64,000 nt of DNA from Zobellia barbeyronii (lineage in GTDB: Bacteria > Bacteroidota > Bacteroidia > Flavobacteriales > Flavobacteriaceae). Position 1 is the stretch's first letter; every line of letters starts with the position of its first letter. This document shows, piece by piece, positions 20,109-62,491 of this stretch. The notes beneath the pieces were generated by a model. The model had not been told where the DNA came from. It worked only from the letters and a program-made list of their open reading frames with translations, and did not search any database. Both the position numbers and the translations under genes were made by a program. The stretch is taken from contig NZ_JACATN010000005.1 of assembly GCF_018603515.1 (NCBI RefSeq), positions 124,001 through 188,000 on the forward strand, given 5' to 3'.

Positions 20109-22724
20109 ATGGACAAAATAAAACAAAATATAGATATTTCAATTGCCGATCTAAATGCGATTGCAAGAATTGGTTATTGGCAGCTTGACACTTCTTCCGA
20201 TACGTATTTACTTGATGACATTTCTTGTGAAATTACTCAGTTACCAAATGGCACTACATTAAGCACAAAAGAAAAACCTCCCTTTTGCCCTACCGGAAAT
20301 AAATGGGCCGTTATACAGGAGACATTAGCTAAAGCTATAGAACAAAAATCTTCTTTTAATCATGAAGTAGAGTTGTTCCTTTCTGATGGAAACTCTATTT
20401 GGGTGTTATTAATCGGAAAAGGTAATTATGATGAGGGAGGTAATTGTGTAAACGTTTCTGGAATGGTCCAGGACATAACGATAAGGAAAAATTCTGAAAT
20501 TGAATTATTCAAAAAAAATGAGATTTTAAACTATACGGAGAACAAGGCTTCGTTAGGTCACTGGAAATGGGACTTAAAGAGTAATGTTATTACCTGCTCT
20601 AGAAATATATCTCGTATAATTGGCTCTCCTGATGGTGAAAAAATTACTATTGAGATATTAACAGAAGGAATTCACCCGGGTGATAAAAAACAGGTACAAG
20701 ATCATCTAAAAAATTCAGTAGAAAGTAAAACATTTACTCCCCTTCTACACCGGTATATCTTAGAGGATGGTACCGAACGTATAATTCAAGTTTTAGGAGA
20801 ACCCCTTTTCAATAAAGCAGAAGAATTAACCGGTTTCATGTGTAGTTCTCAAGATATTACTGCAAAAAAACGTTTTGAGGATGAGCTTTTTGAAAAAAAT
20901 AAATTATTTCTCACTGCTCAACAGAAAGCTCATTTTGGCTATTGGCTATGGAATCTTACAACTGATTTATTTAGTTGTTCCGAGAATATGGCAGATGCTC
21001 TAGGATTTGAAAGGAATGTTGAGTTTACCATGAGTGATCTTCTAAAAGATATTCCTCAAGAAAATCAGAAAGATATCTTAGATACATTAAATAAAACAAT
21101 TGAAACAAAGTCCTTTGTTGAATTTACCCATCCTATTTATATGCATGGGGAACTCAGACACATAAAAGTTACCGGAGAAGTATATACTGATTTAGAAGGC
21201 AACATTTTAACAATCTTAGGAATTTCACAAGATATTACCGATCAAAAAAACTTTGAAAATGAACTCATAAGCAAGAATCAATTACTTGGGTTCGCAGAAC
21301 AAATCACAAAGATTGGTAATTGGCAATGGGATTTAAATACCAATAAAATAAAATGGTCTACTAACCTCTACCGGATTTTTGAACGAGAAGATAATTTACC
21401 AATTGTTTTTGATATTTATTACAGTTATATCCACCCAGAAGACAGAGAAAGGGTGAGCGCAATAATTGACACCATTTTAGAAAGCAAGGATTTTGAAAGA
21501 GTTATACACCGCATCTTATTAGAAAATGGTAAAATTAAAACTGTAGAACTATTAGCTATGGCTATACGGGACCAGTATGGTAATGCTATTGAGATGTTAG
21601 GTACGTTGCAAGATGTTAGTGAGCAACGGGCAGAAGAAATGAAATTTAAAGGTTTGTTGGAATCTGCTCCAAATGCAACGCTCATATTGGATGAAGGCAA
21701 TATTATACAGATGATTAATAAACAAGCTGAGCGCCTATTTAAATATACTCCAGAAGAATTAGTAGGTAGTAATATAGACCTTCTAATACCTTCTAGATTT
21801 GATGAAAAACGAGCACCATTAAGAGAAGCTTTTTATGCCAACCCTACAGTAAAAACCTATGACATGGGTGCTGGTCTTCATATGTTGAACAAAGATGGCA
21901 AGGAAATTCCCGTTCAGGTAACTCTTGGGCCATTGCAAATTGAAGGTGGGCTTCTCCTTTCTGTAGTAATCCGTGATATAACAGAAGAGAAGCTACATCA
22001 AGAAAATATTATAAAAGCTAAAGAAGATTTGGAGACTCTTACTCAAGAGCTTACAACACAGAACCATCAGCTTGCAGATTTTACTCAAATAACCTCTCAT
22101 AACTTACGTGCGCCGGTAAGTAACCTAAACTCTCTCTTGGATATCTATAAAATGATGGACAATGAGGAAGATCAAAAAGAGCTATTCAAAAAATTTGAAA
22201 TCGTAATAGCCCATCTTACACTAACACTCAACACCTTAATAGAAGCACTGACCGCAAAAAACCATACTTCTCTTGAACGTAGTGAGGTATCATTTGGTGC
22301 TACTCTAACGAAAACAAAAGAAATTTTCACTGCTGAAATCAGTAATTCAAAAGCAATTATTAAGAGTAATTTCGCAAAAGTAGACTCTATACGCTACCAT
22401 AAAATATACTTAGAAAGTATATTTCAAAATTTAATAGGTAACGCTTTAAAATATAAATCTAGAGAACGTGTTCCTGAGTTAGAGATAAGTTCTAAAATAG
22501 ATAATGGAAAGACAATCCTAAGCTTTAAAGACAATGGCCTAGGTATAGATTTAGAGAAACATGGACACAAAATATTTGGATTAAACAAAGTATTTCATAA
22601 CCACCCAGAAGCAAAAGGTATTGGTCTTTTTATGACCAAAACGCAAATTGAGGCCATGGGCGGAAAAATTACAGTTTCTAGTAAAGTAGACGAAGGCACT
22701 ACTTTTAATATTCATTTCATTTAA
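20109..22724 (+). CDS. soluble multi-PAS sensor histidine kinase (copy 1)
   Basis: 871 residues without signal or membrane helices, so cytoplasmic. About five PAS/PAC units fill residues 1-640, several with the recurring GHWKWDL or GNWQWDL start and ISQDIT or VRDIT end. The H-box lies in ITSHNLRAPVSN (His664), the N-box in NLIGNALKYKS, and the G-boxes in DNGLGIDLE and GIGLFMTKTQIE. It phosphorylates a response regulator, presumably the one 5 bp downstream. It is the paralogue of the kinase at 23195; the kinase cores are nearly identical while the PAS regions have diverged and differ by one unit. Confidence 0.92.
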   Translation: MDKIKQNIDISIADLNAIARIGYWQLDTSSDTYLLDDISCEITQLPNGTTLSTKEKPPFCPTGNKWAVIQETLAKAIEQKSSFNHEVELFLSDGNSIWVLLIGKGNYDEGGNCVNVSGMVQDITIRKNSEIELFKKNEILNYTENKASLGHWKWDLKSNVITCSRNISRIIGSPDGEKITIEILTEGIHPGDKKQVQDHLKNSVESKTFTPLLHRYILEDGTERIIQVLGEPLFNKAEELTGFMCSSQDITAKKRFEDELFEKNKLFLTAQQKAHFGYWLWNLTTDLFSCSENMADALGFERNVEFTMSDLLKDIPQENQKDILDTLNKTIETKSFVEFTHPIYMHGELRHIKVTGEVYTDLEGNILTILGISQDITDQKNFENELISKNQLLGFAEQITKIGNWQWDLNTNKIKWSTNLYRIFEREDNLPIVFDIYYSYIHPEDRERVSAIIDTILESKDFERVIHRILLENGKIKTVELLAMAIRDQYGNAIEMLGTLQDVSEQRAEEMKFKGLLESAPNATLILDEGNIIQMINKQAERLFKYTPEELVGSNIDLLIPSRFDEKRAPLREAFYANPTVKTYDMGAGLHMLNKDGKEIPVQVTLGPLQIEGGLLLSVVIRDITEEKLHQENIIKAKEDLETLTQELTTQNHQLADFTQITSHNLRAPVSNLNSLLDIYKMMDNEEDQKELFKKFEIVIAHLTLTLNTLIEALTAKNHTSLERSEVSFGATLTKTKEIFTAEISNSKAIIKSNFAKVDSIRYHKIYLESIFQNLIGNALKYKSRERVPELEISSKIDNGKTILSFKDNGLGIDLEKHGHKIFGLNKVFHNHPEAKGIGLFMTKTQIEAMGGKITVSSKVDEGTTFNIHFI

Positions 22725-22729
22725 GAAAT

Positions 22730-23137
22730 ATGCAACACCCCTTTCACCTTTGTATTGTTGATGATGACGATATTTATAGGTTTACAATTATTCAATCTGC
22801 AAAGTTTTCTAAGATTGAACATATAACCTCTGTTTTCCCTAATGGGGAAGAGGCGATAAATTTCATTAAAGAGAATCAGGATACTCCTGACGCGCTACCA
22901 AATCTAATTTTATTAGATATTGATATGCCTATTATGGATGGCTTTCAGTTTCTAAAAACTTACAAAGAGATTGAAGCCAAAATAAGCAAGAAGATTGCCA
23001 TATATATGGTTTCATCATCTGTAGATCCAGAAGATATAGAAAGAGCCAAAAGTTACACAGCGGTTATTGATTATTTATCAAAACCTTTAAAAAGCGATAA
23101 GCTCAAGGCAATAATAGAAAAAACATTAGAAGGTTAA
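22730..23137 (+). CDS. single-domain response regulator (copy 1)
   Basis: 135 residues, receiver domain only. Acidic pocket IVDDDD, phospho-acceptor Asp in LILLDIDMPIMDG, Ser/Thr switch in YMVSSS and Lys in LSKPLKSDK. It has no output domain, so it acts by protein contact or as a phosphorelay intermediate. It starts 5 bp after its kinase and is nearly identical to the receiver at 25444, including long identical DNA stretches. Confidence 0.92.
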   Translation: MQHPFHLCIVDDDDIYRFTIIQSAKFSKIEHITSVFPNGEEAINFIKENQDTPDALPNLILLDIDMPIMDGFQFLKTYKEIEAKISKKIAIYMVSSSVDPEDIERAKSYTAVIDYLSKPLKSDKLKAIIEKTLEG

Positions 23138-23194
23138 GAACCTACAGTTATACACATGCTTTTTTGCTATATAAAAATTTCAAGTTAGTTATTC

Positions 23195-25438
23195 ATGAAT
23201 ATGAAAGATGATAAAAAAACAATGGACGATACTAGCGCGATAACCATTCGTGACATGTTACGCATTGGCACTTGGAATTTAAATATTGAAACAGGTATTT
23301 ATTCGTTGGACAAGGTTACCTGCGAAGTGTTAGGCATACCTTACGATTGTGTAGTTAAAAGAGGTGAAAAATCACTATTTGACAAGCCTGAGGCTACTGA
23401 ATTTTTAATTAAGGATGGGATAATTGAATTAATAAAAACGGGGCAACCTTTTGACCAAGAACTAGAGTTTAAAACTAAAAAAGGAACTGTGATATGGCTG
23501 CACGTTATAGCTACCCGCAAATTAGAAAATGATAAATGCACTGCAATTGCAGGAATCGTACAAGACATTACAAAAAGTAAGCAAACTCAAGAAACATTTT
23601 TAAGGCATAATCAATTATTAAAATTTGCTGAACACAAAGCAAAACTAGGGCATTGGAACTGGGATGCTAGTTCAGATACGTTAATTTGCTCAGAGAACAT
23701 GACTTATATAGTAGGTGTTCCTACGGACGTTCCAGTACCTCTAAGTGTTTTGATAGATAAGGTTCATCCAGAAGACAGAGAGTTCGTAAGAAAGCAAATA
23801 GCATATAATATTAAAACCAAACATTACCATAGTTTTAACCACAGAATGGTAATGCCAGATGGCAGAACCCGAATTATTCAAGTTTCAGGAGATGCTATTT
23901 TGGATGATGAAGGAAACCTCACAAACATATTAGGTATTTCACAGGATGTTACTAGTTATAAAACCATAGAGACTGAGTTAACTAAAAAAAATGAGCTCTT
24001 AATTTTTGCAGAACAAAAGGCTTTATTAGGTCATTGGGAACTAAATACGCTTACCGATGAGGTATTCTGGTCTGCCAATTTGTATTACCTTTTTAAGCAG
24101 GAAGAAAACATAAAACTAGAATTCAATACGTATTTTGAATGTGTACACCCAGATGACCAAGCAGTAGTTACGGCCCATTTTGCTCAAGCGATAGAGCAAA
24201 AACATTTTGACAAAATTATACATCGCATCCTATTAAAAGATGGTACACTAAAGTGGATTAGATTGTTGGGTGATGTTGAGGTTGATAAAAAAGGAAATAC
24301 GGTAAAGTTAGCAGGCACTTGCCAGGATATCTCTGAACAACAACTACAAGAAATCAAGTTTAAAGGACTTGTGGATTCTGCACCTAGTGCAACCATAATA
24401 GTGGGTAATGAAAGTATTATTCAAATGGTTAACAAACAAGGAGAAAGCCTGTTAGGTTATTCTTCTGAGGAATTGGTAGGAAAATCTATAGAAACGCTAA
24501 TCCCTTCAAGATTTGATGAGATTCGTACTCCGCATAGAGAAAAATTCCTGACCAATATGGAGGTAACAATAGTAGACCTTGGTGAAGATTTCTACTTAAC
24601 GCACAAATCTGGAAGGGAAATTCCAGTTGAAATAACCCTTGGCCCTTTGCAAACAGATGAAGGTCTTATTATATCTATGTCTGTAAGAGATCTTACTTCT
24701 GCTAAAATTGCCGAGAGTAAAATTTTAAAAGCGAAAGAGGACTTGGAAATTCTGACCGAAGAACTCACCGCTCAAAATAACCAATTGGCAGACTTTACAC
24801 AAATTACCTCTCACAACCTAAGAGCGCCAGTAAGCAATTTAAATTCGCTTGTGGAAATATACAAAATGATGGGAAGTGAGGAAGAGCGCAATGACCTGTT
24901 CAAAAAATTTGAAACAGTAATCTCTCACCTTTCACTAACTCTCAATACGTTAATAGAAGCATTGAGTGCCAAAAGCCATAATTCATTAGAACGTAGCGAG
25001 CTTTCCTTTAGCAATAAGTTATCTAAAACAAAAGAGATTTTCTCTACAGAAATAGAAAGGACTAAAGCGGTTATTAAAAGTGATTTTTCAGCGGTAGATT
25101 CAATTCGTTATAATAAAATCTACATGGAAAGCATTTTTCAAAATCTAATTGGAAATGCTTTAAAATATAAGTCTCCAGAACGCGTTCCAGAAATAGAGAT
25201 TACTTCAAAATTAGAAAATGGAAAAATTATTTTGAGCTTTAAGGATAATGGCTTGGGAATAGATTTGGAAAAGCATGGTCACAAAATATTTGGTTTGAAC
25301 AAAGTTTTTCATAACCACCCGGAGGCCAAAGGAATCGGTCTCTTTATGACAAAGACCCAAATTGAAGCTATGGGCGGAAAAATTACAGTAACAAGTAAAG
25401 TCAATGAAGGCAGTACTTTCAACATTCATTTTATTTAA
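23195..25438 (+). CDS. soluble multi-PAS sensor histidine kinase (copy 2)
   Basis: 747 residues with about four PAS/PAC units (one fewer than copy 1), then HisKA-like and HATPase regions. Phospho-acceptor His540 in ITSHNLRAPVSN; N-box NLIGNALKYKS; G-boxes identical to copy 1 (DNGLGIDLEKHG). It lacks membrane segments. PAS sequences differ enough from copy 1 to sense different cues. It arose by tandem duplication with the following receiver. Starts 57 bp after receiver 1. Confidence 0.92.
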   Translation: MNMKDDKKTMDDTSAITIRDMLRIGTWNLNIETGIYSLDKVTCEVLGIPYDCVVKRGEKSLFDKPEATEFLIKDGIIELIKTGQPFDQELEFKTKKGTVIWLHVIATRKLENDKCTAIAGIVQDITKSKQTQETFLRHNQLLKFAEHKAKLGHWNWDASSDTLICSENMTYIVGVPTDVPVPLSVLIDKVHPEDREFVRKQIAYNIKTKHYHSFNHRMVMPDGRTRIIQVSGDAILDDEGNLTNILGISQDVTSYKTIETELTKKNELLIFAEQKALLGHWELNTLTDEVFWSANLYYLFKQEENIKLEFNTYFECVHPDDQAVVTAHFAQAIEQKHFDKIIHRILLKDGTLKWIRLLGDVEVDKKGNTVKLAGTCQDISEQQLQEIKFKGLVDSAPSATIIVGNESIIQMVNKQGESLLGYSSEELVGKSIETLIPSRFDEIRTPHREKFLTNMEVTIVDLGEDFYLTHKSGREIPVEITLGPLQTDEGLIISMSVRDLTSAKIAESKILKAKEDLEILTEELTAQNNQLADFTQITSHNLRAPVSNLNSLVEIYKMMGSEEERNDLFKKFETVISHLSLTLNTLIEALSAKSHNSLERSELSFSNKLSKTKEIFSTEIERTKAVIKSDFSAVDSIRYNKIYMESIFQNLIGNALKYKSPERVPEIEITSKLENGKIILSFKDNGLGIDLEKHGHKIFGLNKVFHNHPEAKGIGLFMTKTQIEAMGGKITVTSKVNEGSTFNIHFI

Positions 25439-25443
25439 AACAT

Positions 25444-25851
25444 ATGGCACAGCCTTTTCACCTTTGTATTATTGACGACGATGATATTTATAGGTTTACA
25501 ATTATTCAATCTGCAAAGTTTTCTAAGATTGAACATAAGACTTCAGTTTTTCAGAATGGAGAAGAAGCAATTAATTTCATTAAAGAGAATCAGGATTCCC
25601 CTGATGCGTTGCCAAATCTTATTTTATTAGATATTGATATGCCAATTATGGATGGGTTTCAGTTTTTAGAGACCTATAAAACTATTGGGCCCAATCTGAC
25701 CGAGAAGATTCCTATTTATATGGTTTCTTCCTCTGTAGACCCAGAAGATATTGAGAAAGCTAAAAGCTGTGAATTTGTTGTTGATTACTTATCCAAGCCT
25801 TTAAAAAGTGATAAGCTTAAAGCTATAATAGAAAAGACGATCGGGCTTTAG
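25444..25851 (+). CDS. single-domain response regulator (copy 2)
   Basis: 135 residues, receiver only, with the same acidic pocket, LDIDMPIMDG acceptor and LSKPLKSDK as copy 1. Most differences are in the alpha4-alpha5 face (for example TYKTIGPNLTEKIP), the surface that usually contacts partners. Starts 5 bp after kinase 2 and ends 22 bp from the convergent glycosyltransferase gene. Confidence 0.92.
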   Translation: MAQPFHLCIIDDDDIYRFTIIQSAKFSKIEHKTSVFQNGEEAINFIKENQDSPDALPNLILLDIDMPIMDGFQFLETYKTIGPNLTEKIPIYMVSSSVDPEDIEKAKSCEFVVDYLSKPLKSDKLKAIIEKTIGL

Positions 25852-32233: not shown

Positions 32234-33532
32234 ATGAAAAACAAAGCGAAAATAGCCACCTTGGCCTTTATGTGTGCCAACCTCTGTATTGGAGCATCTG
32301 ACATTAATTTGATTGAAACTGAGTTTACTCCTATTACCTCAGCAATTGCTATCAATGAAAAAACTGTAACGCTCAGCAGTCATGGTTTTCTTGCCCAGCA
32401 GAAAAGTAGTTTCACTATTTCTGGTCAGACTGAGCATATTGAACGAGGACTAACAGTCATTCATTTTAATTCTGATGAAACCTTTGAGTATAAAACCTAT
32501 GACACCTATTCCAGTCCTGAGGCAGTAGATAAACTTCTACTTATACTAAAGCAGTTACAAGTAAACAAGGCCACTTTTGCTATTCTAGCCCATGATTCTG
32601 CTGTAAACGGTGCTTTAAATTCATCTGCAGAGTTATCAGAAATGGGATTCATAAAACTTGGTACACTAAAAAGTCGGGAAGCCTATGTCATGTATAACTT
32701 TAGTGGTGTAATTACGGAAAAGGTTAACGATCGTTCTGTAATAATTTCAGAAGACGTTCCTGATCTATCAAAGGATGACAAAATCTATTTTCCGCGTATC
32801 ACTTATGAATTTGAACCTAACAACAACCGCTATATTGCCCATGCGGGCGGGGAGATAAACGGAGTTAAGTCTACTAACAGTAAGAATGCCCTAGATGAAA
32901 ATTATAAAAAGGGATTCCGCCTTTTTGAACTTGATATTATTGAAACTTTGGATAAAAAGCTGGTGGCAGCACATGATTGGGATATGTGGGCACGCTTTAC
33001 AGATTATACGGGGGCATTGCCTCCCTCCCATTCAGAATTCATGAAACATAAAATTTATGGAGATTATACTACTCTAGATTTAAAAGGAATAAATGCGTGG
33101 TTCAAGGCGCATCCGGATGCTACCTTGGTTACCGATAAAGTGAACGACCCTGTTGCTTTTGCTAATCAATTTATAGATAAAAGCCGATTACTAATGGAAC
33201 TCTTTAGCCCAATGGCGGTTGAAGAAGCTTCTCAACATGGTATTAACGCCATGATTTCCCAAGGACCATTAATGAAAATAAAAGGGGACAAAATACAATG
33301 GTTAGCAATTAACAATGTGAAACACGTAGCCCTCTCCCGCAGGATATTATCCGCACAGAATAAGTTGATGTTGCAATTAAGAGATGAAGGAATTAAAGTC
33401 TATGTCTACAATGTGAACTTTGACCCTGGTAAAGATGAAAAGTATGTACAAGAGAATGAAATTGGACTTGTATATGGCATGTATGCCGATAAATGGGTGT
33501 TTGATACTAAAGTAAAAAAAGACAGCAAGTAA
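32234..33532 (+). CDS. secreted ILEI-GDPD fusion (glycerophosphodiester phosphodiesterase-like)
   Basis: 432 residues with an N-terminal hydrophobic signal (about 1-20). Residues 71-160 match the ILEI/PANDER (FAM3-like) fold: GLTVIHFNSDETFEYKTYDT, a middle ILAHDSAVN and the C-terminal KSREAYVMYNFSG, the positions of the family's NTY/FDT, DE and RDSW elements. Residues 200-425 are a GDPD-type TIM barrel: His203 in AHAGG, Glu232/Asp234 in FELDI and His247-Asp248 in AAHDWD. GDPDs cleave glycerophosphodiesters. Convergent with, and 9 bp from, an operon encoding an LTA-synthase-like enzyme, so the substrate may be a phosphoglycerol-bearing polymer (inference). Confidence 0.78.
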   Translation: MKNKAKIATLAFMCANLCIGASDINLIETEFTPITSAIAINEKTVTLSSHGFLAQQKSSFTISGQTEHIERGLTVIHFNSDETFEYKTYDTYSSPEAVDKLLLILKQLQVNKATFAILAHDSAVNGALNSSAELSEMGFIKLGTLKSREAYVMYNFSGVITEKVNDRSVIISEDVPDLSKDDKIYFPRITYEFEPNNNRYIAHAGGEINGVKSTNSKNALDENYKKGFRLFELDIIETLDKKLVAAHDWDMWARFTDYTGALPPSHSEFMKHKIYGDYTTLDLKGINAWFKAHPDATLVTDKVNDPVAFANQFIDKSRLLMELFSPMAVEEASQHGINAMISQGPLMKIKGDKIQWLAINNVKHVALSRRILSAQNKLMLQLRDEGIKVYVYNVNFDPGKDEKYVQENEIGLVYGMYADKWVFDTKVKKDSK

Positions 33533-33541
33533 ACGGTGCAT

Positions 33542-34867
33542 TTAGAATTTCACTTCATAGGTGACACCTGCTGAAACTCCATAAAAGAATTTACCTGATG
33601 CGAATGCTAATTCTTGTCTTGTAGCTCCCACATTTGCCCTATAAATATTCGGGCTCTTTTTTCCGGTGAACTGATACTCCAAACTTACCCTTTGCGACTC
33701 TACATACAACAAGGTCTCCGCCAACAGTTCATCTCCAGAAGTCAACTGTCGTAACTCAGGCGAAAAGCCCATACCCACATTCAATCCCAAATAGTTCTCC
33801 GCATCTTTCAAGTATTTGCGTACAAGAAAATTACCTGAAAATTTGGTTAGATTATCTGACAATGGTGTAATGTATGAACGAAGTGAAAAATAATAGTTAC
33901 CTCTATAGTGCCCTAAGGAGTTGGAGATAACAGAAACGTTTTTAGTTTCATAGCTGATGTAACGACCTCCTGCTGAAAATTCAAACGCACCTGGTAAATT
34001 CACATAAAGATCACCACCCATTTTATGCTCCGGATAAATTGATGAGCTAGAATAGCCATAATTCAAATAAGCATAAAAGCGCTTTGAAAACTTTGGATAA
34101 AAATCTAGATCATACTGTACACCATTTGCACCTGATCGATTACTATAGTTTATTCTAGGAATAATACTACCCGCCAACGTTTGTCTTTTAAACGAAATAC
34201 TGGAGTAGTAGATAGGATCATACCTCTGATCAAAGACCGTTGCAGCATTTCTTACTGAAATTTTATTATTGAATACTTCTTCCCCTAGTGGAGTTTTTGC
34301 AGCAAGTTTATCAATAGCCTCTGGTTTTAAGGTTTCTGATTTTTTTTCATTGCTAACCAAAAGAGCTTCTTCTTTAGAAACTACCGAATCGTCTTGATTA
34401 AACCATCCTGATTCTGGGTATTCAGCATTGGCTACGCCTTCTTCGGCAATCGCTTTTAGCCTTTCTACCTCATCATCACTTTTAAGATGCACCAAAGCTT
34501 TATTGGCCAGACCAATTGCGGTAGCATTGTTATCAGCATAAAGTTCATTCTTTATAGAAGCTATCCAGACACTTCTATCCGTCTTGTCTGAAGAAATTAA
34601 GATATTAAATTCATCTCTAGCTTTGTCATACTCTTCACTCCAGCTGTAGGTACTCGCTAACAAAGAGCGAGCGTCATGGTCTTTAGAGTCTGGCTTTATT
34701 AATTGTGTCAACATTACGTTAGCAGACCTAAAATCACCATCATAAGCCAAATTACGAGCCTCCTCAAAACTTACAGCACTAATTTCTTTATATGCCGTAT
34801 CTTGACTCCGGGCGAAAAGGCCTACGAAAATACATAGCACGAACAGAGATGTAGCTTTAAGACTCAT
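33542..34867 (-). CDS. YaiO-family TPR and outer-membrane beta-barrel protein
   Basis: 441 residues. Sec signal (about 1-21, GLFARSQ). Residues 35-145 contain TPR-like helical repeats (EEARNLAYDGDFRSANVML, ARSLLASTYSWSEEYDKA). Residues about 210-441 form a beta-rich region with many aromatic ends and a C-terminal Phe (VTYEVKF), the mark of a Bam-inserted barrel, in the YaiO family layout. It is the likely outer-membrane exit or anchor of the polymer pathway. ATG overlaps the LTA-synthase-like stop by 4 bp; last gene of the operon. Confidence 0.82.
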   Translation of the reverse strand: MSLKATSLFVLCIFVGLFARSQDTAYKEISAVSFEEARNLAYDGDFRSANVMLTQLIKPDSKDHDARSLLASTYSWSEEYDKARDEFNILISSDKTDRSVWIASIKNELYADNNATAIGLANKALVHLKSDDEVERLKAIAEEGVANAEYPESGWFNQDDSVVSKEEALLVSNEKKSETLKPEAIDKLAAKTPLGEEVFNNKISVRNAATVFDQRYDPIYYSSISFKRQTLAGSIIPRINYSNRSGANGVQYDLDFYPKFSKRFYAYLNYGYSSSSIYPEHKMGGDLYVNLPGAFEFSAGGRYISYETKNVSVISNSLGHYRGNYYFSLRSYITPLSDNLTKFSGNFLVRKYLKDAENYLGLNVGMGFSPELRQLTSGDELLAETLLYVESQRVSLEYQFTGKKSPNIYRANVGATRQELAFASGKFFYGVSAGVTYEVKF

Positions 34868-37251
34868 TCTGATTCAAACGAATTAATAGCAGTCTCCGTA
34901 TCAGATTTTTTAATTTTCTCTAAAAAAGCAGTAATTCTTTTATTTCGCGCCTGATTACGTGCGCGTTCTATTTTATCTTCTATTTCATGAGCGCTAGCAC
35001 TATTCTCCTGTACCGTTTCAATTAATTCTAAAGCTTCTTTTGAGCGTTCTGACCAGAAATAAACATCAAACAAAGCAGAATACGAATCAATATAATTTGG
35101 ATTCATTTTAATACAATCGTTCAATATTTTGATAGATGTATCATAATTGCCTTGCCAAACATTAACCCTACCCATTAGTATCTTAGTATCTATGTGGCTG
35201 GGAACATCAGATAAGATGTATTTACATAGTAATAAAGCTTTATCAAATTTTTTATCGAATGCGAGGTCTCTTGCTATGAAATACCCCTTATCTGAATCCC
35301 GCCCATTATAAACGCTGTTGAGCCAAATGGTTTCACTATCAGTAAATTGTTCTTCTTTTACCGTAAAGACAGCCAAGTCATCTGGAATTATCTTATTGTT
35401 ATTCGTCACATAAGCGTTCATAGCTTTGAAGGATTGCATCTTGCTTTCACTTTTAGAACCTCCAAAAGTAGAACCTAAATCCATATTCTCATCCAACGAA
35501 TAAACAGAACCATCAGAGTACAGATTCTCCCCGTCAACAAATTCTTTTAATTCGTTCTTATTACGCATTAGAGGTATGTTCTTAATTGAACGATACTCTT
35601 CGCTCATATCTAACGCGCTACCCATCCATGCGACTTCTTTAGGTGTTTTAAGTTCGTATCTAGACTCAAGAAGAGCCAATAACGTTGGAGTTACATCAAA
35701 ATGAGAATTGACCGCACTCATTTTCTTAGTTGTCTTCAAAAGCGGACTATACATAATTAACGGTACATGAAACCTACTTATATTATTCCGCTGTGGTATT
35801 GGTATTAATCTGTGGTCACCTGTAATAACAAAAATCGTGTTGTCATAATTAGGTTGCTTTTTATATTCTTCTAAAACATATTTTAAAGCATTATCCGTAT
35901 AAAGTAGCGTAGCAAAAACATTCTCGTTCTTTTCTATTACTCTTTCTACCTTTCCTTCATAATCGCCCTGAGCTAGTATCTTGGCTACTTTGGCTTCGTA
36001 GAAATCTTGTTTGGGCGGAAGAAACGGTTCATGAGTACTAATAGTCATATAAACCTCCATACGTGGCTGTTCTGCTGCCCTAGGTAAACTCATACTCTTT
36101 TTAAAAAGTTCTTTATCTGGGTAGCCCCATGAAGTACCTGCGGCATCTTCTTCCTGCATCTGATACTTATTTCCGAATCCCGACTTATCTAGAACAAAAT
36201 CTAAGTTTTCGCTCTGTAAAAATCGATCTACATTATCAAAAGAACTATTAGTTCCTTGATAAAATGAAGTATGGTAGCCGTTGTTCTTTAAAATACTGAA
36301 CAAGGTGAGTTTGTTTGGGTATTTCTCAAGCTCCATAAATCCGCTTTTACCGAAAGGCAACGAACCCAATAGAGAAGGTAGTACACCAAAAGTTCTTCCA
36401 GTGTTACTCAAGCAGTTCTCCCAATACAAAGACTTGGTAGTAAGAGAATCCAAAAATGGAGTAAAACCGCCATATTCTGCTCCTTCACCAACGAAGTCTC
36501 TTCCCAGGCCTTCAACCATTATGAAAACGATATTGGGTTTCTCTTCTTTAAGTTCAAAATAATCACCTAAAACGTTCTCTATCGGTTTTGACTTAATTAG
36601 CGGATACTCTACATCTGAGTTATACGAGGTATCTTCCGTAGAAGTACCATAAAGATTGAGTGCTAGATATTGTGTTTTATTATGGTTAATAGGTTTACCT
36701 TCTATAAAAAGCGTAGCCATAAACATGCTAAATAGAATAATGGTAAATGGATACATTTTACTAATGTGATGGTAATGCTTTGACGTCACCTTATAAAACC
36801 CGTAAAACATACCAACTATAGACACAAGCGCTACTGGAAGCATCCAAGATATTCCTCCAGAATTTGCGATGGTCATCTGAATATCATTGAAGCTATATCC
36901 CAATAAATCTGACCCCAAAGGAACTAAGGCCGTACAGAAATAGCTTATAAGCATTGCCTCGATGATTAAAAGAACAAGAAGTAATGCAAAGATTAAATTG
37001 AAACCATAACGTGGACGTAAATTCTCCCAAAAATTGAATGGAAACGCCAGTATAACCCCTATCAAAGAAGTGAAGCCTATTTGATGCACTACGGCTATAA
37101 GAAAACTGGCTCCAAATATAACATCTACTACACCTTTGAAGTATAGGGTGGTATATTGATAAATAGTAAGCACCAAAAGACTACCGAAGAAAGAAATCAT
37201 CAATCTCGTATAGTGCTTTAAAGAGTATCTATCTATTGTACTTGTATTCAT
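34864..37251 (-). CDS. LTA synthase-like phosphoglycerol/phosphoethanolamine transferase with C-terminal TPRs
   Basis: 795 residues. Five predicted membrane helices (about 15-37, 48-70, 84-106, 135-152, 167-183) precede a periplasmic alkaline-phosphatase/sulfatase-fold domain (about 238-545): metal Glu247 in IVFIMVEGLG, nucleophile Thr287 in NTGRTFG, and metal Asp-His in VITGDHRL. This matches LtaS/OpgB-type enzymes that move phosphoglycerol (or phosphoethanolamine) onto glycans. Unusually, a TPR-like tail follows (about 655-795, for example VNVWQGNYDTSIKILNDC). It sits between a GT2 and an outer-membrane barrel. The donor is unknown. Confidence 0.82.
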   Translation of the reverse strand: MNTSTIDRYSLKHYTRLMISFFGSLLVLTIYQYTTLYFKGVVDVIFGASFLIAVVHQIGFTSLIGVILAFPFNFWENLRPRYGFNLIFALLLVLLIIEAMLISYFCTALVPLGSDLLGYSFNDIQMTIANSGGISWMLPVALVSIVGMFYGFYKVTSKHYHHISKMYPFTIILFSMFMATLFIEGKPINHNKTQYLALNLYGTSTEDTSYNSDVEYPLIKSKPIENVLGDYFELKEEKPNIVFIMVEGLGRDFVGEGAEYGGFTPFLDSLTTKSLYWENCLSNTGRTFGVLPSLLGSLPFGKSGFMELEKYPNKLTLFSILKNNGYHTSFYQGTNSSFDNVDRFLQSENLDFVLDKSGFGNKYQMQEEDAAGTSWGYPDKELFKKSMSLPRAAEQPRMEVYMTISTHEPFLPPKQDFYEAKVAKILAQGDYEGKVERVIEKNENVFATLLYTDNALKYVLEEYKKQPNYDNTIFVITGDHRLIPIPQRNNISRFHVPLIMYSPLLKTTKKMSAVNSHFDVTPTLLALLESRYELKTPKEVAWMGSALDMSEEYRSIKNIPLMRNKNELKEFVDGENLYSDGSVYSLDENMDLGSTFGGSKSESKMQSFKAMNAYVTNNNKIIPDDLAVFTVKEEQFTDSETIWLNSVYNGRDSDKGYFIARDLAFDKKFDKALLLCKYILSDVPSHIDTKILMGRVNVWQGNYDTSIKILNDCIKMNPNYIDSYSALFDVYFWSERSKEALELIETVQENSASAHEIEDKIERARNQARNKRITAFLEKIKKSDTETAINSFESE

Positions 37252-37259
37252 TTATAATT

Positions 37260-38690
37260 TTAAGCGGCTTTTGCAAAGCCTTTACGTACCTGAGATCCCC
37301 AGCCCGATTTAATCCTGAACAATTTCTTGTAATTACCCCTAACAGCAGACCATACTACGATTGGATGAAAAAATATAGGCTCTATAATGGCACAGAGCAT
37401 TAAGGTTAAAATATCTTTTGTTTTCTTATACTCGTTATAACTGTACACATCCCAAAGAATGGCATAAAACGAAAACATAACGGAAAATATATATACCATT
37501 GCCGTTATGGCGATAAAGAAATCCCAATTTAGAATCCCTAAATAGACGAAGAGTATTATGGTAAAAAAACCAAAGAACTCCATAAGCGGTGCAAGCCATT
37601 CATAAAAAAACCAATACGGGTAGCTTAATAACCCTAAGCGACCATATTTGGAATTAAAGAACATGTCTTTATGCTTGAATAAGGTTTCTAAGTTACCTCT
37701 CGCCCACCGATCTCTTTGGTTGACCAGTATTTTTAAATCTTCTGGTACTTCTGTCCAACAGAGGGGGTCTGGTATGTATTCTATGGTATAGGGTTCTTTT
37801 CGGTCATGCATGTACCTACGCATCTTAAAAACAATCTCCATGTCCTCTCCAACGGTACCTGTATCATAACCACCTACGGCTAATGCAATCTCACGGTCAA
37901 AAAAACCAAATGCACCGGATATGATTAGAAGACTATCTATACTACCCCAAGCCATTCTTCCTAAAATAAAAGAGCGGGTATATTCTAATAATTGAAACCT
38001 TGCCAGCCAATTGGTCGGTAAACGTATTTCTTCTAGCTGGCCACCTTCTATTACACAAGAGTTGGCCACACGTATAACGCCGCCAACAGCAATCACCCTT
38101 TTTTCTGAACGTTGATAAAATGATTTCACTACATGTAACAAAGCATCAGGAAGCAAAAGACAATCTACATCTATACAACCTACATAACGATTGGTAGAAA
38201 GTGCCATGCCTGTATTTAAGGCATCGGACTTTCCTCCATTTTCTTTGTCGATGACAGTTAGCTTAGAAAAAGCTCTGTGAGGTGATTTGTAAATACCGCG
38301 AATAGGTTTATTCTTCCAATTCGGGTCAATTTTTTGGTCTATTTGAACAAGGTCGTACGCATCTATCATCTTCTGAAGCGTATCATCCTTACTACCATCA
38401 TTAACCACCATAACCTCGTAGTTCACATACCGAAGCGACATAAGCGACCGTATGTTCTCAACAATGGTCATACCCTCATTATAAGCTGGTGCAATAATGG
38501 TAATGCTAGGCGCTAAAGGAGATGCCATAACCTTTGAAAGGTTACCAAAACTATTCTTTTTTCTATAGTGTATAGAGTTTCTAGTAGACAGGAAACCCAT
38601 TATGGTAAATAAGGTAAATAGAGTTACAGTAAACATCAAGAACATGATGTTTATGTAATCTAAGATTATATTAAAGAGAGTACTATCCAT
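37260..38690 (-). CDS. processive membrane glycosyltransferase family 2
   Basis: 476 residues from the ATG at 38690 (a TTG four codons upstream is rejected); it overlaps the HEAT gene by 8 bp. A membrane helix at the N-terminus, a GT-A domain, then about four helices at the C-terminus. Catalytic motifs: VNDGSKDDT, CIDVDC (DxD), TVGEDMEIV (acceptor-side base) and NQRDRWARG (QxxRW), the set found in PgaC/cellulose-synthase-type polymerases that synthesise and extrude a polysaccharide. The product is unknown. Confidence 0.9.
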   Translation of the reverse strand: MDSTLFNIILDYINIMFLMFTVTLFTLFTIMGFLSTRNSIHYRKKNSFGNLSKVMASPLAPSITIIAPAYNEGMTIVENIRSLMSLRYVNYEVMVVNDGSKDDTLQKMIDAYDLVQIDQKIDPNWKNKPIRGIYKSPHRAFSKLTVIDKENGGKSDALNTGMALSTNRYVGCIDVDCLLLPDALLHVVKSFYQRSEKRVIAVGGVIRVANSCVIEGGQLEEIRLPTNWLARFQLLEYTRSFILGRMAWGSIDSLLIISGAFGFFDREIALAVGGYDTGTVGEDMEIVFKMRRYMHDRKEPYTIEYIPDPLCWTEVPEDLKILVNQRDRWARGNLETLFKHKDMFFNSKYGRLGLLSYPYWFFYEWLAPLMEFFGFFTIILFVYLGILNWDFFIAITAMVYIFSVMFSFYAILWDVYSYNEYKKTKDILTLMLCAIIEPIFFHPIVVWSAVRGNYKKLFRIKSGWGSQVRKGFAKAA

Positions 38691-41607
38691 TAAACTTACC
38701 AATCAGCTTTTTTGGGAAATCTATGATATTGGTTAAAAATGAATTATCGTTAGAGGATATTTCATTAGCCTCAACTTGAATATCCAATACTTTTTTATCG
38801 TACTTTTTATCAAGCACCTCGGTGTCTTCCAATACAAAATCAAAATCTAAAGTATCTGAGGCTCTTGGTACAAAAGCTGTTTTCTTGGTTTTGAAGTACT
38901 CTTTCTTGGACTTAGTTTCTATAAAAGGTTCTAGTATAGAAAGGTCAATAGGTAGTTCTCCCACTGGTCTTGGTATGAGGTCCTTCTCAAATTCGGTTTT
39001 TCTCGAAACTTTTTCTACTAGCAGTTTTAAAACTTCTTGCGCCTTAGCCCTAATTTCTAAATTAGAATCTCCCAAAAGTCCATCCAAAAAAGTAATTTCC
39101 TTTTCATCTCCAACTGAAACAATCTCATCTAGAAGCAACAGCTTAGATTCCGTATCCACATTCTTGAATAAATCTGCAAATACATTAAATGTCGGCATCT
39201 CCAACTCGCGTTCTACTGGTGTTTTACTACTAGTTTGTTTTATTGTTTTCTGTGTATAAGAAAACTGCTCTATAAGACTTGAAATACGGTCTTTTATAAA
39301 ACTCTGGTTTTCTTCTGCCAAAAGCTCTTGTAATAACGGTATCTCTCTATGATCACCCATTTCTTCCAAATCATCAAGAAGCCCCATCATGTACGCTTCA
39401 TGTTCATTGTAATAAATGGGTTCTGGTATTAAATCTGCAAAGGGTTTAATGGGCTTTATAGGCTCTACCTTATCGTTTTCTAATTCATTTTCTCGAAGTT
39501 CATTTTCTGCCATTAGCCAAGATATTACATCTTGAGAATCATTGACCACAGGCCCTACTTGATTAGTATTACTGGGCTCTTCTGAAATTTCTTCTTTTTC
39601 CTCTTTTACTTCTGGAATTGAGTTTTTTGTATCTTCAAACTGAACCTCAAAATCAGATAATGTATAGCCATCTATACTATTTGTATTTTTAGTCTCTACT
39701 TCTTCAGGCGTTGTGTCAACAACATGTTGCTCATCTACAACCTCGTTATCCATAACGATTGGCAAAAAATTAAGCTCATTAATTTCATTAATGAGTCCCT
39801 GTAAATCTTCATTTTCATCCAAAGTACTAGATTCAGGTAATTCATTCTCTACTTTCTGCTCCTCTACTACAATTGGTAGAAAATCGATTTTAGAAACGTC
39901 AAAATCTGGTTTATCTATTGTAGCATCGGATTGAATAATAGAATTAATTTCATCGAATTCAACTTCAATCTTTTTAATATCGCGGCTGGTGTTTTCTGAA
40001 TCTGCCATGGGTTTATATTTTGGTATAGTATGGTTAGTTGTGTGTGTGTTATCATTTGTTACAAGGGGTAAAAAATCGAACCTTAGTGAAGGTTCTGAAA
40101 ATATTTCCGCTTCTGGACTCCTTATTTTCGTTGAAATACCAGAGACCACAACAGGGTCAACAACAATTATCTCGGTTACTTGTAAAGCTTCGATTTGTTC
40201 TGGTTCGCAATCTTCTTTTTCTTCAACTGTTTTATTTTCAGTAATCTCAGGTACTTCAGTATTCACGATTATCTGCTCTGTAGCTTCTTCCTCTGATTGC
40301 TCTATGCTCGTATTAAAATGAACATCATTAGGTAGCTCTTCTGGGGCGCTATCAACAGATATTGATTCCTCTACCGTATCTTCTTCTTTAAAATCCTTAA
40401 CAATAGCAGGAACACCTGTTTTTTCTTCAATCTCTTTTGCTGCTGCAGAAACTTGAGGTAATTCAATTTCTATATTTTCAGTAGTATCAAGTTTTATTTG
40501 TCCTTCTTTGATTTCAGCTACATACTCTTTTGAAACCTCAATACCTTCAGATGGCATAACACTTTCTGGATCAATAGTATTTATAGCTAACAAAGCCTTA
40601 CTAGAAACTAAAAAATCGCTTTCTCCTTTTTCGATTTCATTTAGAAAACCAAGATCATCATGACTACCTATTTCTGCAATGGCCCCTAAGACAGCAATCT
40701 TACTATAGGTGTTAGATTTTTTAAAAATTGATTTAAGCGTAGGTATAGCCTCAGCCACATAAAACTCTTTAATACAGCTAATTGCCTCTTGTTTAATTTG
40801 ATTGTCTTTATGCTTTAGCAGCTCAATAAGAGAGGCATTAGCATCGTTTTGGTTATAATATTTTATAAGCCTCAAGGAGAAAAGAACCACATGCTTATTC
40901 TTTGAAGTAAGCCACATTCTAAACCTAGGCGGTTCAAAACCGTCTTGGTTACGGATAACGTCTAACAACTTTAACTGCTGCCATTCAGATATTTTATAGC
41001 GTGTAGTGTCAAGAAAATAGTTAATTCCTTCTGGTTTTAGTGTAACCGTGGCAATTTCTGCCTGTTTCCTTATAGTGCCTGTTTTGTGATTAATGAATTT
41101 AGTAATAAAACTATAGGCTGATACAACCTGCATTTGTGTAAGTTCCAAAATACCTTTTGAGACAACTTCCCAATGCCAGCTTTTAAGTTTTTCAAAAGCA
41201 TCTTTTTCAAGTCCTAAATCTTGATACAGAGCAAAGAGTCGCGTTTGTGTATCTCCAGAAACATCTTTTCTCAGGTCCAAAAGTACTTCTACTAGTATTT
41301 TTCTATTGAAATCGTTTTTAAGTAATTCACGTATTTCAATTTTAAGGGAGATGTAATTAGATTTTTCGTCTTTATTAGCATCCTCTTCATAAAACAAAAA
41401 CTCACTAATCATTGGTGAAAGTTCCTTTTTACTTTGCCTTGTAAGTCGCGCGGTTCCAGATATTCTATTTCTAAAAAAGAAAACAGAGAGAAAATAGATT
41501 ACAGCTAGGACAATAAAAAATATAGATAAAGCCCACAGAACATCTGTGTTTATCTTAGGTGCCGTTATAAAAGCCACCCCGTTGTATGTGCCGTAGGTAT
41601 CTAACAA
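38683..41607 (-). CDS. large membrane-anchored HEAT-repeat protein
   Basis: 974 residues. One membrane helix at 24-46; the bulk is probably cytoplasmic given the basic RNRISGTARLTRQSKK immediately after it. Helical HEAT-like repeats at about 85-350 and 735-870 flank a long acidic, low-complexity linker (about 350-735). The linker contains three copies of a short motif, DFLPLV (511), DFLPIV (575) and NFLPIV (613). HEAT scaffolds hold protein partners together; position between a receiver and a GT2 suggests it links signalling to synthesis. Starts 2 bp after the receiver stop. Confidence 0.75.
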   Translation of the reverse strand: MLDTYGTYNGVAFITAPKINTDVLWALSIFFIVLAVIYFLSVFFFRNRISGTARLTRQSKKELSPMISEFLFYEEDANKDEKSNYISLKIEIRELLKNDFNRKILVEVLLDLRKDVSGDTQTRLFALYQDLGLEKDAFEKLKSWHWEVVSKGILELTQMQVVSAYSFITKFINHKTGTIRKQAEIATVTLKPEGINYFLDTTRYKISEWQQLKLLDVIRNQDGFEPPRFRMWLTSKNKHVVLFSLRLIKYYNQNDANASLIELLKHKDNQIKQEAISCIKEFYVAEAIPTLKSIFKKSNTYSKIAVLGAIAEIGSHDDLGFLNEIEKGESDFLVSSKALLAINTIDPESVMPSEGIEVSKEYVAEIKEGQIKLDTTENIEIELPQVSAAAKEIEEKTGVPAIVKDFKEEDTVEESISVDSAPEELPNDVHFNTSIEQSEEEATEQIIVNTEVPEITENKTVEEKEDCEPEQIEALQVTEIIVVDPVVVSGISTKIRSPEAEIFSEPSLRFDFLPLVTNDNTHTTNHTIPKYKPMADSENTSRDIKKIEVEFDEINSIIQSDATIDKPDFDVSKIDFLPIVVEEQKVENELPESSTLDENEDLQGLINEINELNFLPIVMDNEVVDEQHVVDTTPEEVETKNTNSIDGYTLSDFEVQFEDTKNSIPEVKEEKEEISEEPSNTNQVGPVVNDSQDVISWLMAENELRENELENDKVEPIKPIKPFADLIPEPIYYNEHEAYMMGLLDDLEEMGDHREIPLLQELLAEENQSFIKDRISSLIEQFSYTQKTIKQTSSKTPVERELEMPTFNVFADLFKNVDTESKLLLLDEIVSVGDEKEITFLDGLLGDSNLEIRAKAQEVLKLLVEKVSRKTEFEKDLIPRPVGELPIDLSILEPFIETKSKKEYFKTKKTAFVPRASDTLDFDFVLEDTEVLDKKYDKKVLDIQVEANEISSNDNSFLTNIIDFPKKLIGKFNG

Positions 41608-41608
41608 A

Positions 41609-41980
41609 TTAGTTTTTGTTCAGTTCGCGGGCAACGCGCACCAAAAGTTCTGACGGACTTACTGGTTTTGATATAAAGTCGTTAGCGCCCAATTCAAATG
41701 CATTCAATACGTTTTCTTCATTTCCCGCAGAGGATATAATAATAATGGGTATTTGAGAATTCAATTCCTTGCGGACGTATGCAATGAGCTCCATACCTGA
41801 GAAGTAAGGCATCATAATATCGCTCACTATTATATCCGGCATAGTACCAGCTAGATATTCTTTTACTTCTTTTCCGTTGGCACGGTGGCTAACATCATAG
41901 CCTCCTTTTTTTAATCGAAAGTTTAGTAGAGATGCAAGCAACTCATCATCTTCCGCCAACAATAATCTCTTTTTGGTCAT
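41609..41980 (-). CDS. single-domain response regulator in the glycan operon
   Basis: 123 residues, receiver only. Acidic pocket LAEDDE, phospho-acceptor Asp54 in IVSDIMMPYFSG, Ser pair in IIISSAG and the conserved Lys in FISKPVSP. No output domain, so it probably acts by binding a partner such as the adjacent HEAT scaffold. Located 11 bp after the HPt gene and 1 bp before the HEAT gene. Confidence 0.92.
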   Translation of the reverse strand: MTKKRLLLAEDDELLASLLNFRLKKGGYDVSHRANGKEVKEYLAGTMPDIIVSDIMMPYFSGMELIAYVRKELNSQIPIIIISSAGNEENVLNAFELGANDFISKPVSPSELLVRVARELNKN

Positions 41981-41991
41981 TGTTGGGGATT

Positions 41992-42726
41992 TTAGTTGTT
42001 GGTCAACTCCACATAAGCACTATCTAATGATTTTTTTACTTTTGGAAATTCTTCATTAAAGCACTTGCAAAGAAACTCTAGATGCTTTGGGTCCTGGTCT
42101 ATTTTGCATCCTTTTTGAATTTGGACAACAATATCATGTAAACCATCTGTTCGCATCATGGCCAGTCCTGCTTTTATTTTATGTGCAGCGAAATCTAACT
42201 GTTCAAAATCCTCACTTTGAAGGTGAATTTTGGCAGCTCCCATGAATTCAAGGGCATTCCCTATGAAAAGGGTAATTAACTCACGCAAAAGGCCCATTTC
42301 GCCCATGCATTCCTCTAGAATTATACTTAAGTCTATTTGAGTATCGCTATTTTGCTTATCGTTGGTCTTTCCTTTAAAAATTAAAAAGTCTTTTTCGTCC
42401 ATAGCAGCATCAATTTCAAGGTCTTTTAAAACATTACCATAAGATTTATGGTGTTCTACAATAGCTTCGTATGTCTGCAAATCTATTTCTGGATAAGCAG
42501 TTTCAAACTCATTAGTTCTGGCTATCGATTTTTTTTCTTGACTATCATTACTAGAATCATTATTGCTCTCCCTAGATAGGAAGACCATTTCTAATAGATT
42601 CTTTTTGAAATGTTGAAAAGATATTTTAAGATGGAAAGCTTCGTCTGTAGTTAATTTTTCAGATGAAAAATTATTAAGATGTGATTCTAAATCCGATAAT
42701 TGGAAAAGTAGGTTTTTCGTTTTCAA
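41992..42726 (-). CDS. histidine phosphotransfer (HPt) domain protein
   Basis: 244 residues. The C-terminal about 110 residues form an HPt four-helix bundle with phospho-His182 in FAAHKIKAGLAMM, the position of the usual AHxLKG motif; the Gly after Lys is replaced by Ala-Gly. The N-terminal half is helical and polar with a Ser/Asn-rich linker. No histidine kinase is adjacent, so phosphate must come from a kinase elsewhere. First gene of the operon. Confidence 0.8.
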   Translation of the reverse strand: MKTKNLLFQLSDLESHLNNFSSEKLTTDEAFHLKISFQHFKKNLLEMVFLSRESNNDSSNDSQEKKSIARTNEFETAYPEIDLQTYEAIVEHHKSYGNVLKDLEIDAAMDEKDFLIFKGKTNDKQNSDTQIDLSIILEECMGEMGLLRELITLFIGNALEFMGAAKIHLQSEDFEQLDFAAHKIKAGLAMMRTDGLHDIVVQIQKGCKIDQDPKHLEFLCKCFNEEFPKVKKSLDSAYVELTNN

Positions 42727-62484: not shown

Positions 62485-62491
62485 ATGTAAA

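What the first reader, a model, noticed from the sequence alone, without database searches (positions are those of the whole stretch)
32234..42726. Putative undescribed glycopolymer system: phosphorelay, HEAT scaffold, processive GT2, LTA-synthase-like enzyme, YaiO barrel, with an ILEI-GDPD facing it
Six tightly packed genes (overlaps or gaps of up to about 11 bp) span all layers: HPt and receiver (cytosolic signal), HEAT scaffold, inner-membrane polymerase, periplasmic phosphoglycerol-type transferase, outer-membrane barrel. The convergent secreted GDPD-like protein could cleave the phosphodiesters that the transferase adds. No known export family (Wza, PgaA, BcsC) is present; the TPR-bearing YaiO protein would fill that place. 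The parts are known families; the combination as one pathway is inference.
Basis: partly seen in the sequence, partly recalled or inferred. Interest (0 to 1): 0.75.

Follow-up and report, generated by a model that had tools for sequence, protein, structure and literature searches.

The report
Bacteroidota glycan synthesis and export operon
A conserved gene set in marine and soil Bacteroidota looks like a machine for making, modifying and exporting a surface sugar polymer; it appears to be switched by a protein phosphorelay instead of the usual messenger c-di-GMP, and its modifying enzyme has been lost in some lineages while the rest of its protein was kept.

Summary
The seven genes are real, at the stated places, and tightly packed. 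REC, HEAT, GT2, LtaS-like protein and YaiO belong together: collinear in 71 of 83 loci with enough flank, all partners somewhere in the stretch in 92 of 110, and GT2 fused to the LtaS-like protein in 10 of 110. GT2 has an invariant processive signature and, in a fused relative, a hyaluronan-synthase-like fold. YaiO is predicted as TPR plus a 14-strand barrel; Foldseek's first matches are the exporters BcsC and PelB, with low TM-scores. In 40 GT2-positive versus 40 GT2-negative family genomes, YaiO occurs in 39 versus 0, HEAT in 38 versus 1. No GGDEF or PilZ was found in the genome; 25 of 28 carriers show no GGDEF.

Most likely: a synthase-dependent glycopolymer system controlled by a phosphorelay through REC and a membrane-anchored HEAT protein.

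The LtaS-like transferase lost its metal ligands in one clade (12 genomes) and its whole catalytic domain in another genome, keeping membrane and TPR parts, so a structural role is likely. The GDPD is clade-restricted (33 of 110 loci). Polymer identity, phosphate decoration and REC–HEAT contact are inference.

The parts
41992..42726 (-). HPt protein, 244 aa; hybrid histidine kinase with its core missing (relatives have HisKA-HATPase-REC-HPt, about 600 aa or more)
   Evidence: Pfam Hpt; relatives' domains; its profile aligns to residues 8-124 and 467-592 of a 593-aa relative; phospho-accepting His188 in 52 of 52 aligned
41609..41980 (-). single-domain receiver (REC), no output domain found, 123 aa
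   Evidence: Pfam; D11, D54, K105 invariant in 87 of 87 aligned
38683..41607 (-). HEAT-repeat protein with one N-terminal hydrophobic segment (27-45); long variant, the short relatives are about 330-410 aa
   Evidence: Pfam HEAT_2; hydropathy: exactly one such segment in the first 130 aa of 91 of 96 relatives; cytosolic side is inference
37260..38702 (-). processive-type GT2 synthase with membrane helices
   Evidence: D103, DxD 179/181, ED 287/288, QxxRW invariant in 102 of 102; hyaluronan-synthase-like fold of the fused relative L060
34864..37251 (-). LtaS/OpgB-like protein: N-terminal membrane domain, alkaline-phosphatase-superfamily domain (about 236-612), C-terminal TPR
   Evidence: active-site residues E247, T287, H407, D479, H480, H495 present here (residue roles by alignment and recall)
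33542..34867 (-). YaiO-family outer-membrane protein: periplasmic TPR plus 14-strand beta-barrel (predicted)
   Evidence: Pfam/NCBIfam; model pLDDT 85.2; Foldseek first matches BcsC and PelBC, PgaA-type 4y25 at rank 11
32234..33532 (+). ILEI-GDPD protein, convergent; clade-restricted accessory
   Evidence: H203, E232, D234, H247 invariant in 33 of 33; beside the operon in 33 of 110 loci

Best explanation
A synthase-dependent glycopolymer system of Bacteroidota. The GT2 protein polymerises a sugar (perhaps a HexNAc, as it is nearest to PgaC and resembles hyaluronan synthase) and passes it through its membrane channel. The LtaS-like protein sits beside it in the inner membrane, adds a lipid-derived phospho-group (probably phosphoglycerol) in lineages with an intact active site, and with its TPR helps hand the chain to the TPR of YaiO, whose 14-strand barrel is the outer-membrane exit. 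Control is post-translational: a hybrid kinase, HPt and single REC pass phosphate to REC, which acts on the membrane-anchored HEAT protein and so on the synthase, in organisms mostly without c-di-GMP. Shown by computation: gene set, conservation, predicted folds, intact residues, catalytic losses, no GGDEF or PilZ match. Inferred: polymer identity, export, phospho-decoration, the TPR hand-over, the REC-HEAT-GT2 contact.
Against: Nothing was tested biochemically. The transferase is not essential to the system: 13 of 110 LtaS-like proteins lack metal ligands, one of 40 GT2-positive genomes has lost the catalytic domain and 6 of 40 show no such protein. A kinase-like ORF (300 aa or more with REC) was seen in only 59 of 110 stretches; the window is among the 51 without. 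HEAT was not found in 14 of 110 stretches, several of them not cut short (L042, L043, L046, L048). The YaiO model's Foldseek TM-scores are about 0.3, its barrel has 14 strands where known exporters have 16-18 (recalled), and by VIA-align the barrel sits with FadL, CymA and OmpG. E. coli YaiO scores -1.3 bits against the profile made from these YaiO proteins, although E. coli matches the Pfam family. REC could act elsewhere.
Confidence: 0.6

Rival explanations
1. The LtaS-like protein is mainly a structural trans-envelope adaptor (membrane platform plus TPR) between synthase and YaiO; its enzymatic domain is an optional extra or, in the clade with lost metal ligands, an anion-binding module like that of PbgA/LapC.
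Against: 94 of 110 keep all six active-site residues, and in the two active groups compared the catalytic domain is the best conserved of the three parts. About 660-730-aa relatives without the C-terminal TPR exist (for example L047, L048, L050-L052), so the TPR is not universal either.
Confidence: 0.4
2. The LtaS-like protein acts on something else (a membrane glycolipid or periplasmic glucan, as OpgB does) and is only co-regulated with a GT2-YaiO exporter.
For: Nearest E. coli protein is OpgB, whose acceptor is a periplasmic glucan (recalled; score). Paralogous HEAT-GT2-YaiO sets without it exist (L037, L132), as do 6 of 40 GT2-positive genomes without it.
Against: Ten single-polypeptide GT2-LtaS-like fusions that need at least five changes on the tree.
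Confidence: 0.2
3. The phosphorelay acts on transcription or on another target, and the HEAT protein is a static scaffold.
For: Single RECs can be phosphate sinks or act at a distance (recalled); no contact was tested. In some loci REC lies apart from HEAT (for example L039, L045, L049).
Against: REC lies upstream on the same strand within range in 72 of 83 loci, usually touching HEAT. No DNA-binding domain was found in the window REC or in the five relatives' kinases scanned.
Confidence: 0.3
4. An ordinary Pga, Bcs, Alg or Pel operon with divergent genes.
For: GT2 is a distant PgaC relative (145 bits against a 422-bit cut-off); the YaiO model resembles BcsC, PelB and PgaA in layout.
Against: None of the seven genes matched a PgaB, PgaD, BcsB or BcsZ family, and no PilZ was found in the genome.
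Confidence: 0.05

Closest known systems
E. coli phosphoethanolamine-cellulose system (BcsA, BcsG, BcsC)
   Same: GT2 synthase, membrane-anchored periplasmic lipid-phosphate transferase, TPR plus outer-membrane barrel exporter (PMC11379886 abstract)
   Different: No BcsB or PilZ found; transferase is OpgB/LtaS-like, not BcsG-like (58 vs 0.5 bits); YaiO barrel of 14 strands (model); REC-HEAT genes; natural GT2-transferase fusions
E. coli PgaABCD (poly-GlcNAc)
   Same: nearest GT2 among the 17 E. coli proteins tested (117 bits); TPR-barrel exporter
   Different: no PgaB or PgaD match in the set; different exporter family
E. coli NfrBA (phage N4 receptor glycan)
   Same: GT2 synthase plus outer-membrane protein making a secreted glycan (PMC8669469 abstract)
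   Different: NfrB is c-di-GMP controlled; GT2 similarity only 10 bits
E. coli yaiS-yaiP-yaiX-yaiO cluster
   Same: yaiO beside a putative glucosyltransferase and modifying enzymes (annotation)
   Different: deacetylase and broken acyltransferase genes instead of an LtaS-like one; no HEAT or REC annotated there; E. coli YaiO is 257 aa
Myxococcus EpsW-EpsZ
   Same: single-domain REC activating polysaccharide synthesis post-translationally (PMC12802240 abstract)
   Different: target is a Wzx/Wzy initiating phosphoglycosyl transferase; a HEAT protein is not mentioned in the abstract
LtaS / OpgB / PbgA (LapC)
   Same: membrane domain plus periplasmic alkaline-phosphatase-type domain
   Different: C-terminal TPR in many members, fusion to GT2, and lineages with lost active site inside an intact operon

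Membership tests
Synthase-dependent exopolysaccharide systems (kind) | processive GT2 with D, DxD, ED, QxxRW and membrane helices | tested here: met
   invariant in 102 of 102; fold match of fused relative to hyaluronan synthase
Synthase-dependent exopolysaccharide systems (kind) | periplasmic TPR plus outer-membrane barrel encoded beside the synthase | tested here: met
   Pfam YaiO and TPR, model and Foldseek; YaiO beside the LtaS-like gene on the same strand in 75 of 83 loci, opposite in 7
Synthase-dependent exopolysaccharide systems (kind) | barrel of the known exporter folds (BcsC, PgaA, PelB) | tested here: inconclusive
   Foldseek ranks BcsC and PelBC first but TM about 0.3; VIA-align's 50 rows show other 14-strand barrels
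Synthase-dependent exopolysaccharide systems (kind) | c-di-GMP control (common, not universal) | tested here: not met
   no GGDEF or PilZ match in the genome; 25 of 28 carriers without GGDEF
Synthase-dependent exopolysaccharide systems (kind) | an exported polymer | not testable with these tools
   needs mutants and polymer analysis
Pga system | PgaC equivalog, PgaB, PgaD | tested here: not met
   PgaC model 145 of 422 bits; no PgaB or PgaD match among the seven genes
Bcs system | BcsA equivalog with PilZ, BcsB | tested here: not met
   CelA 32 of 699 bits; no BcsB match among the seven genes; no PilZ in the genome
LtaS/OpgB-type phosphoglycerol transferase | fold and nucleophile/metal residues | tested here: met
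LtaS/OpgB-type phosphoglycerol transferase | transfer of phosphoglycerol from phosphatidylglycerol | not testable with these tools
   the LtaS-type WxR motif aligns to other residues here and in OpgB (its headgroup role recalled), so it does not decide
LtaS/OpgB (NCBIfam equivalogs) | curated score cut-off | tested here: not met
   LtaS 71 of 970; OpgB models 47 of 572 and 43 of 574 bits
YaiO family | Pfam/NCBIfam YaiO barrel | tested here: met
   213.5 bits vs 23.9; 186 vs 32
GDPD | H, E-x-D, H catalytic residues (recalled motif) | tested here: met
   invariant in 33 of 33; Pfam best stretch only 55 residues

The most novel reading that the evidence does not exclude
A separate, undescribed class of synthase-dependent secretion spread through mostly c-di-GMP-less Bacteroidota, in which a phosphorelay acting through a membrane HEAT adaptor replaces c-di-GMP, and an LtaS-like protein serves first as a TPR-bearing bridge between synthase and YaiO exporter, its phosphotransferase being an optional decoration that whole lineages have switched off.
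Probability: 0.4. Interest if true: 0.78.

Novelty: new variant of a known kind. Interest (0 to 1): 0.64.

Why it matters
Flavobacteria and their kin are major surface colonisers, and how they switch on their own surface polymers without c-di-GMP is, to my knowledge (recalled), largely open. This operon offers a direct candidate for the switch (REC-HEAT), a function for YaiO, and natural enzyme losses that separate the structural from the catalytic role of an LtaS-like subunit. A sample of 299 family genomes holds the GT2 at 239 bits or more in 82, so it is common, not a curiosity of one strain.

Tried and rejected
The GDPD as a core part: rejected. It lies beside the operon in 33 of 110 loci, all within one 42-row branch of the tree. 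After the first 31 stretches, where none had it, I noted it as absent; the 80 named loci corrected that. Its presence only beside LtaS-like proteins without S479 (33 of 33; 32 show all six residues, L111 is cut) fits a role on the product, but dead and GDPD loci are neighbouring clades, so this is one contrast, not a test.

HPt as a stand-alone signal protein from the start: rejected; it aligns to the two ends of a hybrid kinase.

LtaS headgroup residues as a specificity test: led nowhere, since OpgB lacks them too (residue roles recalled).

PDB sequence search with YaiO gave no match better than E 0.39. VIA-align put the YaiO barrel nearest FadL, CymA and OmpG; BcsC, PelB and PgaA are not in the 50 rows shown, which excludes nothing. 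Whole-model Foldseek ranks BcsC first, with TM-scores of about 0.3.

Literature: ten searches of the held library (two of them aimed at the Bcs and Nfr comparisons) listed no paper that, judged by titles and abstract starts, describes this gene set; YaiO with Flavobacterium gave 0 papers. I opened three papers at abstract level (PMC12802240, PMC11379886, PMC8669469) and ran one term search inside PMC7112194, where 'bacteroidetes', 'yaio', 'lta', 'sulfatase' and 'heat' do not occur. Papers such as PMC12419801 were listed but not opened. Subscription papers are not held, so 'undescribed' is limited to these searches.

Sampling limits: loci were chosen by LtaS-like similarity, so counts per locus are conditional on that gene. 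The 83 loci of the order count exclude 27 with short flank, among them 9 of the 10 fusions; of those 27, 8 pass the same five-gene test and 5 have YaiO on the other strand. The 40 positive and 40 negative genomes were picked by me from 82 and 217 (one genome with a split GT2, G334, is among the 217 and was not picked). L064 and L107 repeat the genomes of L032 and L034 and were left out of the tree but not of the locus counts. The tree is the quick method with several long branches and warnings. Many dS values are near or over 1, and two of its twelve LtaS-like pairs were saturated, so dN/dS is rough.

Full report
What is there. The window lies in a 4.98-Mb genome whose same-genus relative G182 has a contig of the same length, 914,779 bases, as a Zobellia uliginosa DSM 2061 contig, so the organism is probably a Zobellia. 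On the minus strand between 42726 and 33542 lie six genes with gaps or overlaps of 20 bp or less: HPt, REC, HEAT, GT2, LtaS-like with TPR, and YaiO; a convergent ILEI-GDPD gene ends 9 bp from YaiO. Pfam and NCBIfam agree on each domain, except that NCBIfam finds nothing in the HPt protein.

Is it one unit? In 296 Bacteroidota genomes the LtaS-like protein matches strongly (269 bits or more) in 28; the next best genome scores 102 bits (at most three candidates per genome were scored, so this is a lower bound). With the window that makes 110 loci with a strong LtaS-like protein. Of 83 with enough flank, 71 carry REC, HEAT, GT2, LtaS-like and YaiO in that order on one strand. Of the 12 exceptions, 7 have YaiO on the other strand, 4 have YaiO on the same strand but no GT2, HEAT or REC in range and strand, and one (L038) shows none of them. 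Some exceptions carry the other genes as a facing operon (for example L051, L052, L055). The 27 loci left out for short flank include 9 of the 10 fusions; 8 of the 27 pass the same test. Without regard to strand or distance, the stretches hold GT2 in 103, HEAT in 96, REC in 101, YaiO in 107 and all four in 92 of 110. GT2 and LtaS-like are one polypeptide in 10 of 110 loci, and a tree of 108 LtaS-like domains needs at least five changes for it.

GT2 scored 239 bits or more in 82 of 299 family genomes, with a gap to 81 bits below apart from one gene split in two pieces. Of 40 such genomes and 40 without, YaiO (Pfam) is in 39 and 0, the HEAT core in 38 and 1 (20 bits), the LtaS-like protein at E<=1e-50 in 34 and 0. 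Two of the 39 YaiO and three of the 38 HEAT matches are weak (YaiO 46 and 54 bits; HEAT 25, 36 and 51 bits). One of the two HEAT misses, G475, shows a weak HEAT match by profile (47 bits). The YaiO miss, G516, is an 80% complete assembly.

YaiO is modelled (pLDDT 85.2, pTM 0.55) as a TPR domain and a 14-strand barrel. Foldseek's first three PDB matches for the whole model are BcsC (3e-11, 8e-11) and PelBC (1.7e-9), with the polysaccharide secretin 4y25 at rank 11, though TM-scores are about 0.3 and rank 4 onward are mostly porins. By VIA-align the barrel sits with FadL-type channels, CymA and OmpG. In E. coli K-12 yaiO lies with a putative glucosyltransferase, a putative deacetylase and a broken acyltransferase gene. 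In six GT2-positive family genomes without an LtaS-like match, HEAT, GT2 and a YaiO protein remain together (in L156 YaiO is on the other strand); in two of them the YaiO protein is a 958 or 989-aa many-TPR form, and in three (L152, L153, L155) a DUF4838 protein follows it directly, one with a NAGLU_N match under its cut-off. This hints at a HexNAc-containing polymer, as inference.

Control. Of 52 HPt proteins aligned, 34 are 500-699 aa long; the Maribacter algarum one is HisKA, HATPase, REC, HPt, and a Lutibacter kinase adds PAS domains. The window protein's profile aligns to residues 8-124 and 467-592 of the 593-aa relative in L151, so the window gene looks like such a kinase with its core deleted. 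A kinase-like ORF of 300 aa or more with REC is in 59 of 110 stretches; many Flavobacterium and Tenacibaculum loci, like the window, show none nearby, so the kinase must often lie elsewhere. HPt His188 is invariant in 52 of 52, REC D11, D54 and K105 in 87 of 87. HEAT has exactly one N-terminal hydrophobic segment in 91 of 96. The genome has no GGDEF and no PilZ match, while 8 and 5 of the 14 control genomes do; 25 of 28 strong carriers have no GGDEF match and three do. The likeliest reading is that phospho-REC acts on the HEAT protein at the membrane. A single REC that activates a polysaccharide enzyme after translation is known in Myxococcus (PMC12802240, abstract), with a different target.

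The surprise: catalysis lost, protein kept. In 13 of 110 LtaS-like proteins (12 genomes) the metal ligand D479 is Ser, H407 is Lys or Ser, and H495 is Lys or Arg, all three in the same 13. They form one clade with SH-aLRT 100. Ten of the 13 carry GT2, HEAT, REC and YaiO in order; the other three (L106, L110, L112) lie on short contigs. dN/dS of the LtaS-like gene is 0.09-0.13 in four of five dead-clade pairs and 0.03-0.08 in six of seven active pairs, the other two pairs being saturated; so the dead form is still under selection, less strongly. The catalytic domain has lost its lead in conservation: for pairs with 40-70% membrane-domain identity, mean identity is 0.52 in the catalytic and 0.50 in the membrane part, versus 0.72/0.64 and 0.67/0.46 in two active groups. 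In a further genome (L151, on a 1.87-Mb contig) the whole catalytic domain is gone in frame and a 383-codon frame coding for membrane domain plus TPR remains between a GT2 with intact motifs and YaiO. This is what one expects if membrane and TPR parts bridge synthase and exporter and the transferase is optional. Against a TPR bridge in all, relatives of about 660-730 aa lack the C-terminal TPR (for example L047, L050, L051).

The GDPD. Its H, ExD, H residues are invariant in 33 of 33. It occurs in 33 of 110 loci, none with S479; 9 of the 13 dead loci have over 8 kb downstream and still show no GDPD. As GDPD and dead loci are neighbouring clades, this is a single contrast. Trimming phospho-groups from the polymer is plausible and untested. 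Z. uliginosa DSM 2061 (L064) shows none while Z. uliginosa C3R17 (L065) has it.

Novelty. As a kind it is a synthase-dependent glycopolymer exporter, and its architecture parallels BcsA-BcsG-BcsC (PMC11379886, abstract). I could not file it under Pga or Bcs (membership table), nor does its GT2 resemble NfrB (10 bits), and ten literature searches of the held library listed no description of it. I rate it a new variant of a known kind.

Noticed in passing
L151:10061-11212: Natural LtaS-like protein without its catalytic domain: membrane domain joined in frame to TPR inside an intact operon.
   Followed up: yes
L152, L153, L155 (downstream of the YaiO protein): DUF4838 protein directly beside the YaiO protein in LtaS-less versions of the cluster, like a dedicated hydrolase; in L157 a GH97 gene faces YaiO instead.
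   Followed up: partly
L037:12636-16446 and L132:13792-17635: Second HEAT-GT2-YaiO set without an LtaS-like gene, next to the full operon (L132 is Flavobacterium psychrolimnae; L037 groups with it).
   Followed up: no
window 20109-25851: Two tandem, similar multi-PAS sensor-kinase-like genes, each followed by a single REC gene (read by eye), a duplication upstream of the cluster; possible kinases for the orphan HPt.
   Followed up: no
window 54587-57613: 1008-aa protein of several near-identical repeats of about 105 residues with a C-terminal sorting-like end (read by eye).
   Followed up: no
window 60157-63776: Two genes that look like alginate-lyase-type enzymes (recalled resemblance, not searched).
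   Followed up: no
L152:3369-6245, L153:8088-11057: YaiO barrels carried on 958 and 989-aa proteins with many TPRs, closer in layout to BcsC and PgaA.
   Followed up: partly
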